Source: Solobacterium sp.
GTDB lineage: Bacteria > Bacillota_I > Bacilli_A > Erysipelotrichales > Erysipelotrichaceae
Assembly: GCA_017469355.1 (NCBI GenBank)
Contig: JAFUGM010000018.1
Location: 1 to 34,085 of the forward strand
Length of the DNA: 34,085 bases
Direction of reading: 5' to 3'
Under the pieces are notes generated by a model. The model saw only the letters and a program-made list of their open reading frames with translations, had not been told where the DNA came from and did no database searches. The position numbers and the translations under genes were made by a program. Within the stretch, counting starts at the first letter, position 1. Each line of letters starts with the position of its first letter. Shown piece by piece: positions 32,047 through 34,085 of the stretch.

Positions 32047-32079
32047 AAAAAGCAGAACCAATTCGATTCTGCTTTTTTC
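32047..32079 (+). terminator. Intrinsic terminator after the two-hydrolase operon
   Basis: AGCAGAA (32051-32057) pairs with TTCTGCT (32067-32073) across a nine-base loop. AAAA before the stem and TTTTTT after it make it potentially bidirectional. Confidence 0.85.
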
Positions 32080-32145
32080 TATTATGAAATCAGGAACGAA
32101 CTGGACCTGATCAAAGTAGAAGGAATACCTTCACAATGCATATGA

Positions 32146-32265
32146 TTATGAGGTCAGGATCACCAGTGGTTCCTGGCCTTTCTTCTGTAGGCATACAGAA
32201 TGATTGGCCCGGGTAAAGTAAGGACGTAGCTTTTTATAGACCCGGTATAACCGCGAGTCAGTCAC
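32146..32265 (-). pseudogene. Possible 39-codon gene remnant in the IS110 left flank
   Basis: On the minus strand GTG at 32263-32265 opens a frame of 39 codons ending in TAA at 32146-32148. It carries LYRVYKKLRPYFTRANHS and then QKKGQEPLVILTS. The end loosely recalls the EPVVVLS region of Phd/YefM antitoxins. There is no ribosome site, and the frame overlaps the region where a bridge RNA is expected, so it may not be a gene at all. Confidence 0.2.
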
Positions 32266-32419
32266 TTAAAACGTTCTGCTTCCCTCTTGTGTCATAGTCC
32301 GTTTAATCGAAATGAGCACGCACAGGAAACATATTGCGATGCCGGATATAACCCAGAAAAATGGTCTGATACAGGGTGCAGGGAAGACTTACCGGGATTT
32401 ATGTAGGAAAGGAGTCCCT
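32150..32419 (+). ncRNA. Candidate bridge RNA region of the IS110 element
   Basis: IS110 transposases work with a structured non-coding RNA transcribed from the non-coding end of the element, with loops that pair to donor and target DNA. The approximately 270 bases upstream of the transposase are gene-poor and contain a CCGGGT (32209-32214)/ACCCGG (32240-32245) stem. The exact RNA ends and loops were not resolved. Confidence 0.35.
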
Positions 32420-33640
32420 ATGAGAGGACCAGTCATTACGGTGGATGTATCCAAAGGTACCTGCCACTATCAGCCTTTCTTCGAGAAAGGCAAACCGCTC
32501 CGCAAGCCGAAGGTATTAAACGATACTAATGAAGGGTTTGCGGAACTTATAGCAGCCGTCGAGAAACTGAAAGAAAAGAGCGGATGTGATATTGTACCGA
32601 TTATATTTGAAGCTACAGGTATTTATCATCGTTGCCTTCAGAAGTTCCTGGATGACCATGAAATACCTTATTACATCATTTCTCCGCTGCTATCTGCCGC
32701 ATATCGGAAGACTAATCTTCACGGTAATAAGACCGATGATCTTGACTGCGCGCACATCGCAAAAGCTTATTACGATGAAGATCATCTGGATACGTTTCAG
32801 AAGCAGTCGGACCGATTCATCAAACTTCAGCGTATGAATCGCTATTACGAAGTGGAGTTAAACCATCTGCGGATGCGCAAAGTCGCATTCAGAAACTCTC
32901 TGGATATCATCTATCCCCGAATGGATAAGTGCTTCAAAGGGCGTGCCAGCTTATACGATCCGGTGCCCATGGAGGTGCTGAAGAAGTATCCTCACCCATC
33001 ACTTCTGCTCAAGCATAAAGAAGAAACGATCGTCAAAGCGGTTGTAAAAAAGACTGACCATAAACCCGCATTTGTCAGTGAAGTAGTGCACAAGATGTAT
33101 GAATGCGCACAGCACTGCTATTCCGGAGCTGATATCAGTGACATAGAAGTTATCAAACTTCCAGGCATGATTGATGAGCTGCAGAGGCAGATGAAGCTAT
33201 GCGACGCTATTCTTGACGAGCTGATTGAAGAAGCACGGAATGTGCCATACTTCGAAAGTATTGTCTCAATCACTGGGATCGGAGCGAATCTGGCGGCCAG
33301 AATCATAGCAGAACTGGGAGATATGAGCAGATTTACAAGCAGGCGTGCAATTGCGGCATATGCAGGATTAAATCCCAAGATTCTTCAATCCGGTGATGTG
33401 GACGGCACACACTTACGGATATCGAAGAAAGGAAACCGTCATCTGCGATGTCTCTTGTACTTAGGAGCTTCGTGCAATTACCGCCTGAAGAAACATGATC
33501 CGATCTATGAATTCAATCAAAAGAAAAGGCAGCAGTCCCAATCACCATTACGGGCTAAAGCTGCCAATATCGCTGCGGCGCATAAGCTGTTGATCATCAT
33601 TTATGCGCTTTCCAAGAGCGGCGAGCTGTACCGCTCCTGA
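32420..33640 (+). CDS. IS110-family transposase (RuvC-like DEDD plus Transposase_20)
   Basis: The 406-residue enzyme has the N-terminal RuvC-like DEDD domain with D9 (TVDVSKG), E64 (FEATGIYH), and D106 and D109 in KTDDLD. A helical middle follows, then a C-terminal Transposase_20 domain: ITGIGANLAARIIAELGD, FTSRRAIAAYAGLNP, and SKKGNRHLR with S335, the expected nucleophile. These are the hallmarks of serine-dependent, RNA-guided IS110 recombinases. The ATG at 32420 follows GGAAAGGAG by five bases; the open frame extends 36 codons upstream but has no family match there. The reading frame is intact, so the element may be active. Confidence 0.95.
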   Translation: MRGPVITVDVSKGTCHYQPFFEKGKPLRKPKVLNDTNEGFAELIAAVEKLKEKSGCDIVPIIFEATGIYHRCLQKFLDDHEIPYYIISPLLSAAYRKTNLHGNKTDDLDCAHIAKAYYDEDHLDTFQKQSDRFIKLQRMNRYYEVELNHLRMRKVAFRNSLDIIYPRMDKCFKGRASLYDPVPMEVLKKYPHPSLLLKHKEETIVKAVVKKTDHKPAFVSEVVHKMYECAQHCYSGADISDIEVIKLPGMIDELQRQMKLCDAILDELIEEARNVPYFESIVSITGIGANLAARIIAELGDMSRFTSRRAIAAYAGLNPKILQSGDVDGTHLRISKKGNRHLRCLLYLGASCNYRLKKHDPIYEFNQKKRQQSQSPLRAKAANIAAAHKLLIIIYALSKSGELYRS

Positions 33641-33729
33641 ACACATCATACCTCAAACTGAATGAAGATGGTCAGGAATTGAAAATAAGTTTAAAGAACC
33701 ATGGAAGTATACACCTGTAGGAGGGAATG

Positions 33730-33945
33730 ATGTCTAAATGGGGCTGGGGAGAAACGAGCGAAGCGAAGCTGAGAGCGAATAAGAAATATGATTCGGAGCA
33801 TACAAGACAATACCATTTGAAGCTGAATCTTCATACAGATATGGATATTATCGAATGGCTGAATTGGAAAAGCGGTGAGCGCTCGATACAAGGATACATA
33901 AAACGTTTAGTACGGGAAGATATGGCGAAGCGAAAAGCCAAGTAA
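33730..33945 (+). CDS. Small ribbon-helix-helix-like protein
   Basis: The 71-residue basic protein has ANKKYDSEHTRQYHLKLN, then a predicted beta strand followed by helices (DMDIIEWLN and IQGYIKRLVREDM). This strand-helix-helix order and the QGYIKxLxREDM end recall a widespread small protein of Clostridia-type genomes, often beside mobile DNA, with an Arc/MetJ-like DNA-binding fold. The second ATG at 33730 is preferred over 33727 because GGAGG is five bases from it. No partner gene is visible in the window, and a terminator follows. Confidence 0.7.
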   Translation: MSKWGWGETSEAKLRANKKYDSEHTRQYHLKLNLHTDMDIIEWLNWKSGERSIQGYIKRLVREDMAKRKAK

Positions 33946-33985
33946 GGATTCGACAACCCAAAGCATAATCTGATTATTTTCTTAA

Positions 33986-34010
33986 ACAGGAATCCAAAAG
34001 CCTGTGTTTT
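33986..34010 (+). terminator. Intrinsic terminator after the small DNA-binding protein
   Basis: ACAGG (33986-33990) pairs with CCTGT (34001-34005) across a ten-base loop, followed by GTTTT. The remaining 75 bases of the window show no gene. Confidence 0.6.
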
Positions 34011-34085
34011 CATAACGCCTATTTCGATATTCAGGAAGAGGCTTAAATTTCATTAAATTAGGGGTTGATTTCAGTTATCGAATTT

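What the first reader, a model, noticed from the sequence alone, without database searches (positions are those of the whole stretch)
32100..32419. Bridge RNA candidate upstream of an intact IS110 transposase
The transposase keeps D9, E64, D106, D109 and S335, the residues expected for RNA-guided recombination. The upstream non-coding end is long, gene-poor and has a six-pair stem. This could be a new programmable pair.
Basis: partly seen in the sequence, partly recalled or inferred. Interest (0 to 1): 0.58.

Follow-up and report, generated by a model that had tools for sequence, protein, structure and literature searches.

The report
Terminator-homing IS110 with bridge RNA
This is a small jumping DNA element that appears to carry its own guide RNA, whose loops match both its own ends and the gene-end signals (transcription terminators) where its copies sit, so it probably parks itself there without breaking genes.

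Summary
The finding holds up and can be made more precise. The window's last 2 kb is an IS110-group element (32079-34085). Its 341-nt left end contains a bridge RNA (about 32088-32390) with a target-binding loop and a donor-binding loop.

Support from relatives: the structure covaries (19 of 36 pairs changed on both sides). A covariance model finds it in 21 of 23 sources not used to build it; the two misses have truncated left ends. Target guides match each copy's own flanks better than shuffled guides (0 of 20,000, left and right). The donor guide changes together with the right end. A related genome holds the uninterrupted target. Targets are mostly rho-independent terminators: 32 of 39 left flanks have a hairpin abutting the T-tract, against 80 of 400 background T-runs.

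Corrections: the catalytic serine is S324, not S335. The window's own left guide matches its flank only weakly; its right guide matches well, but its right flank is on other contigs. The right end also carries a 71-aa ORF that relatives lack.

Nothing was tested at the bench. A new member of the known IS110 bridge-RNA kind, with a target class not found in the held papers.

The parts
32050..32078 (+). left target: terminator-like hairpin (AAGCAGAA..TTCTGCTT) with 6-T tract, last two T = presumed core (32077-32078)
   Evidence: sequence; hairpin -5.5 kcal/mol abutting the T-run; junction defined by C61 copy and relatives
32079..32419 (+). left end (LE), 341 nt, holding the bridge RNA
   Evidence: copy at C61 and relatives share the left boundary with different flanks
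32080..32085 (+). TATTAT, -10 box that is completed by TTGATT of the right end only in the circle (16-nt spacer)
   Evidence: junction joined; same geometry in relatives
32088..32390 (+). predicted bridge RNA (ends approximate)
32091..32109 (+). 5' hairpin CAGG/CCTG (ATCAGG/CCTGAT)
32149..32181 (+). second hairpin GGTCAGG/CCTGGCC
   Evidence: compensatory changes
32185..32198 (+). third hairpin CTGTA/TACAG
   Evidence: compensatory changes
32211..32227 (+). target-loop outer stem, 5' strand (pairs with 32271-32284)
   Evidence: helix 1, 97.1% of cells paired
32227..32237 (+). left target guide (LTG) TAGCTTTTTAT
32239..32259 (+). hairpin at the tip of the target loop
   Evidence: helix 2
32260..32270 (+). 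right target guide (RTG) AGTCACTTAAA; predicts right flank TTTAAGTG
   Evidence: C29 flank TTTAAGTGG, C25 TTTGAGTGG, C26 TTTAATTGA
32271..32284 (+). target-loop outer stem, 3' strand
32285..32301 (+). donor-loop outer stem, 5' strand (pairs with 32362-32376)
   Evidence: helices 3-4, 96.7% and 91.7% paired
32302..32313 (+). left donor guide (LDG), within GTTTAATCGAAAT; matches right-end TTATCGAAT
32316..32342 (+). hairpin at the tip of the donor loop
   Evidence: helix 5, 73.4% paired
32355..32361 (+). right donor guide (RDG) AGAAAAA, complementary to TTTTTCT at the left junction
   Evidence: L031/L032 change together
32362..32376 (+). donor-loop outer stem, 3' strand
32420..33640 (+). IS110 DEDD/serine recombinase, 406 aa; D9 E64 D106 D109 S324
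   Evidence: fold close to IS621/ISCro4
33730..33945 (+). passenger ORF (71 aa) inside a segment of roughly 325 bp that relatives lack
33968..34085 (+). conserved right end (RE), ends in TTATCGAATTT (left donor + core TT at 34084-34085)
34065..34070 (+). TTGATT, -35 box of the junction promoter

Best explanation
The element is an autonomous IS110-group insertion sequence whose left end encodes a bridge RNA of about 300 nt. (1) After excision as a circle, a -35 box in the right end and a -10 box in the left end join into a promoter that drives the bridge RNA (inferred). (2) The donor loop pairs with the element's own joined ends: the left donor guide with TTATCGAAT, the right donor guide with TTTTTCT (shown as sequence matching and covariation). 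(3) The target loop pairs with a target made of the 3' arm of a terminator hairpin, its T-tract (which holds the TT core) and a few bases beyond (shown as matching and covariation). (4) The DEDD/serine recombinase then exchanges strands at the TT core (inferred from IS621). (5) Insertion leaves the upstream hairpin and a T-tract in place (shown); this should keep host termination working and shield the silent element from read-through (inferred).
For: Ends: copies in G000, 10 bridge RNAs in complete genome G014, 24 left junctions. Structure: 55 consensus pairs, 31 with compensatory changes; a hand-drawn structure is 92.1% paired, 19 of 36 pairs changed on both sides, 0 of 500 shuffles as high for percentage paired or covariation score; the model hits 21 of 23 sources other than the window, including transposases only about 35-45% identical. 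Guides: left target guide mean score 1.04 versus -0.65 shuffled, 0 of 20,000, and in the CM-aligned distant set 1 of 20,000; right target guide 3.07 of 4 versus 1.82, 0 of 20,000, distant set 213 of 20,000. Donor guide types CGAA, CAAA, CGGA, CAAG and CTAA track the right end in 20 of 21 loci where both were read; the exception, L051, is a possible wobble. Target: empty site in G048, orthologous to a filled site in G014; hairpin abutting the T-run at 32 of 39 flanks versus 80 of 400 background T-runs. Protein: predicted fold closest to ISCro4 and IS621.
Against: For the window's own copy the left target guide is a weak match: 3 of 16 other guides score better on its flank, and it carries an A at a presumed core position. 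The C61 copy and six other flanks of 39 lack a hairpin at -5 kcal/mol. Seven further close copies taken alone were not significant for the left guide: 3,052 of 20,000. L057, L015 and L028 match poorly. Right-guide matches score 0 of 4 in L033, L016, L017 and L038 by the simple measure. T-run lengths on guide and flank often differ by 1-2, so the exact register is ambiguous. The window's right flank is not in its contig. Permutation tests do not correct for shared ancestry of elements. No RNA or activity data exist here.
Confidence: 0.92

Rival explanations
1. The element recognises terminators through the protein or the DNA shape of hairpin plus T-tract. The left-end RNA is only a regulatory leader of the transposase mRNA.
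For: Hairpins are strongly enriched at targets, and the left end precedes the transposase start directly.
Against: Flank bases outside the T-tract follow each copy's own guide. L038 and L040 have guides matching other flanks (GGGTAGTCA, TAGTCATTT) and sit at them. The donor guide covaries with the right end.
Confidence: 0.04
2. It is an IS1111-type element with the guide RNA downstream of the transposase.
For: The window copy has an 8-bp sub-terminal inverted repeat (TGAAATCA) and a long right end.
Against: Relatives have only 4-6 bp, about the shuffled level. The extra right-end length is a passenger segment; relatives have 125-151 nt after the stop. The covarying two-loop RNA is upstream.
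Confidence: 0.02
3. The bridge RNA is real, but the terminator preference is only a by-product: T-rich guides find T-runs, and terminators are where T-runs with matching upstream bases are common. There was no selection for terminators as a safe site. (This is an alternative to the safe-site reading, not to the bridge RNA, so its confidence is not additive with the others.)
For: The guide contains the T-tract and some hits are not hairpins (L030, C61, L059, L040).
Against: The hairpin rate at targets is higher than at T-runs in general (32 of 39 versus 80 of 400), and many distinct guides keep both a T-tract and a stem arm.
Confidence: 0.35

Closest known systems
IS621 (IS110 group) and its bridge RNA (PMC11208160; PDB 8WT6)
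   Different: Core TT (CT in L038) instead of CT; RNA about 300 nt with two extra hairpins instead of the 177 nt recalled for IS621; targets are mostly terminator T-tracts; protein 406 aa, 16-19% identity in the fold alignment
ISCro4 (PDB 9T56)
   Same: Best Foldseek match of the predicted model (TM 0.61/0.78)
   Different: Sequence identity about 16%; its target was not examined here
ISEc21 / seekRNA elements (PMC11187229, passages only)
   Same: IS110-family element whose non-coding-region RNA holds target-matching stretches
   Different: The ISEc21 RNA is 74 nt and a 58-nt form works, according to passages read; here the structured RNA is several times longer
Class C group II introns (recalled, no call)
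   Same: Insert next to rho-independent terminators, a likely harmless site
   Different: Retroelement, splicing-based; no shared parts
TIGR-Tas (PMC12045711, passages only)
   Same: Shares the Nop-like RNA-binding fold (rank 19; NF052498 hit below its cut-off)
   Different: Nuclease with tandem guide arrays, not a recombinase

Membership tests
IS110 group (bridge-RNA elements) | RuvC-like DEDD domain | tested here: met
   PF01548 3.4e-22; D9 E64 D106 D109 invariant in 22 of 22
IS110 group (bridge-RNA elements) | C-terminal Tnp domain with catalytic serine | tested here: met
   PF02371 9.8e-23; S324 aligned to the IS621 ESG serine, invariant
IS110 group (bridge-RNA elements) | Long non-coding left end upstream of the transposase | tested here: met
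   LE 292-354 nt in 24 copies; RE 125-151 nt in relatives
IS110 group (bridge-RNA elements) | Structured RNA with target loop and donor loop | tested here: met
IS110 group (bridge-RNA elements) | Loops complementary to target and donor | tested here: met
   met for the family, but the window's own left target guide is weak
IS110 group (bridge-RNA elements) | Scarless insertion at a fixed core without target duplication | tested here: met
   One filled/empty pair, G014 L054 versus G048 L112; T-run length leaves the register uncertain
IS110 group (bridge-RNA elements) | Promoter across the RE-LE junction | tested here: inconclusive
   TTGATT-16-TATTAT in the joined ends; consensus match only
IS110 group (bridge-RNA elements) | RNA bound by the recombinase and recombination activity | not testable with these tools
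   needs bench work
IS1111 group | Conserved sub-terminal inverted repeats of 7-17 bp | tested here: not met
   8 bp in the window only; 4-6 bp in the other 20 copies read, about the shuffled level
IS1111 group | Guide RNA downstream of the transposase | tested here: not met
   Covarying two-loop RNA is upstream; the right end was not modelled separately

The most novel reading that the evidence does not exclude
A lineage of bridge-RNA elements in Erysipelotrichales whose target loops are built to read 'hairpin arm plus T-tract'. The elements colonise intrinsic terminators as a class. They re-point from terminator to terminator, and sometimes away (L038, L040), by natural guide changes, with natural core switching (TT to CT in L038). 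Insertion keeps the upstream terminator and silences the integrated element.
Probability: 0.6. Interest if true: 0.62.

Novelty: new member of a known kind. Interest (0 to 1): 0.5.

Why it matters
It adds a natural recombinase/bridge-RNA family with readable guides, many natural guide-target pairs and at least one natural core change. These are useful for learning how bridge RNAs are re-programmed in nature. A preference for terminators would also explain how such elements reach 10 copies in one small genome without breaking genes. It makes a testable claim that guide RNAs can specialise in a functional class of sites.

Tried and rejected
Rfam on the element: nothing credible above chance. Viral contigs: no relative found. 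Empty site for the window's own insertion: no other genome of 70 in the genus had the left flank. IS1111 membership: rejected. S335 as catalytic residue: rejected. Simple promoter/terminator scan of the element region: below shuffled level. Seven extra close copies as an independent left-guide test: not significant. A first terminator measure with a 30-nt fold was repeated with a longer window because hairpins longer than 30 nt were cut; both are reported.

Literature: nine searches gave no paper describing IS110 elements that target terminators. This rests on search listings plus passages of five papers; subscription papers and bioRxiv are mostly outside the library.

Full report
1. What the element is. 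The transposase at 32420-33640 matches PF01548 and PF02371 and NCBIfam NF033542. A predicted model (mean pLDDT 87) has ISCro4 and IS621 as its best solved neighbours. D9, E64, D106, D109 and S324 are invariant in 22 of 22 aligned relatives, and S335 is not. S324 aligns with the IS621 'ESG' serine (the number S241 for IS621 is recalled). S324 lies in the only low-confidence stretch of the model, 319-336.

2. Ends. The left end recurs at the end of contig C61 of the same genome: the matching stretch covers window 32073-32216 at 99% identity. The right end recurs on C29, C25 and C26 with three different flanks. The window contig stops exactly at the right end, which is what an assembler does at a repeated element. 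Relatives share both ends with different flanks. In the complete genome G014 the element is 1,696 bp in each of the 10 copies (six, four more). In the window it is 2,007 bp because of roughly 325 extra bp in the right end.

3. Bridge RNA structure. Twenty left ends were aligned. RNAalifold gave 55 pairs, 31 with at least one compensatory change. A structure drawn for the target and donor loops (36 pairs) is 92.1% paired. Nineteen of its 36 pairs changed on both sides. None of 500 shuffles reached the percentage paired, the number of pairs or cells changed on both sides, or the covariation score; 121 of 500 reached the count of pair types. Slid controls gave 32-50% paired. The structure was drawn with these sequences in view, so it leans towards them. 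The covariance model R1 was run on 24 sources. It found the window (which was in the training set) and 21 of the 23 others at E up to 0.012. In 70 genomes of the genus, 12 have a hit, and G014 has 10.

4. Guides. In each RNA the 5' side of the target loop resembles the left flank, and the 3' side is the reverse complement of the right flank. For 24 copies with 17 distinct left guides, the mean score is 1.04 against -0.65 after shuffling guides (0 of 20,000; T-T positions were not counted). For 23 right flanks with 11 distinct guides, 3.07 of 4 bases match against 1.82 (0 of 20,000). Examples: L018 guide TGCGGTTTTTT and flank TGCGGTTTTTT; L025 predicted TTTAGTTA and observed TTTTAGTTA; the window predicted TTAAGTG and C29 shows TTTAAGTGG. 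Distant relatives, with guides read from the model alignment, gave 1 of 20,000 for the left guide (14 copies) and 213 of 20,000 for the right guide (11 loci). Seven further close copies alone gave 3,052 of 20,000, not significant; all 45 together gave 0 of 20,000. These shuffles do not correct for shared ancestry. The window's own left guide is one of the weaker cases: 3 of 16 other guides do better on its flank.

5. Donor. The left donor guide follows the right end through five types (CGAA, CAAA, CGGA, CAAG, CTAA), exact in 20 of 21 loci with both read (of 24 in the call), the exception L051 being a possible wobble. The right donor guide AGAAAAA (complement of TTTTTCT) is replaced by CGAAAA in L031 and L032, whose left ends begin TTTTCG. 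In L038 the junction reads CT instead of TT on both sides, and its right target guide and right donor guide carry the matching change by eye. This supports the dinucleotide just before CTATT/CGTATT as the core.

6. Target. Of 40 left flanks, 39 are distinct. Thirty-two have a hairpin of -5 kcal/mol or better abutting the T-run, against 80 of 400 sampled background T-runs; at -9 it is 21 of 39 against 30 of 400. A cruder measure gave 26 of 39 against 463 of 3,180. G048 has the uninterrupted site GGTCCTATATAGGACCTTATTTTTATGCAAATTC where G014 (L054) has GGACCTTATTTT, then the element, then TTTTTATTCAAATTC. The G014 guides together predict about TACCTTC-TTTTT-ATGACG (read by eye). Cases without a qualifying hairpin exist: L030, C61, L059 and L040 score 0, and L038 has no T-tract.

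7. How it likely works. In the circle TTGATT of the right end and TATTAT of the left end come together with a 16-nt spacer (relatives, where rows showing spacer 2 are a script artefact from a second TATTAT in the right end). Transcription would start at the first hairpin of the RNA. This parallels the IS621 account (sections 4, 6 and 12 and passages of PMC11208160). When integrated, the -10 box lies directly behind a terminator and without its -35 box, so the RNA should be silent (inference).

8. Novelty. The mechanism and family are known (PMC11208160; PMC11187229, passages only). I found no held paper that describes IS110 elements aimed at terminators, but the library is partial. The lineage is frequent in this bacterial family (29 of 272 genomes), and more distant transposase relatives occur in other families of the class (16 of 395 sampled genomes; their guides were not read). 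The window's genus includes G033, which shares a contig length (168,821) with the Solobacterium MAG RGIG4449.

Noticed in passing
33730-33945: A 71-aa ORF preceded by a ribosome-site-like AGGAGGG sits inside the element's right end. No Pfam match; 58 of 272 family genomes, this one included, hold a match to it. Looks like a passenger gene carried by the insertion sequence.
   Followed up: partly
98-204: 3' part of a group II intron (Rfam RF00029, 58.2 bits) at the window's left edge.
   Followed up: no
L038 (G010), left and right element ends: Core appears to be CT instead of TT, with right target guide and right donor guide changed to match; its target GGGTAGTCA is not a T-tract.
   Followed up: partly
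L066 (G291) 2571-2795: The region where the target loop should be is filled with imperfect repeats of an ACTTCAATAAAA-like unit. The donor loop is still recognisable; no left guide could be read.
   Followed up: no
L062 (G172), right flank: After the right end the sequence continues with another piece of the element's own right end, as if one copy had inserted into or beside another.
   Followed up: no
L040 (G249), both flanks: GTATAGTCA occurs on both sides of the element, matching left and right guides; possibly a repeated target or a tandem event.
   Followed up: no
32085-32092 and 34066-34073: The window copy has an 8-bp sub-terminal inverted repeat (TGAAATCA) not shared by relatives.
   Followed up: yes
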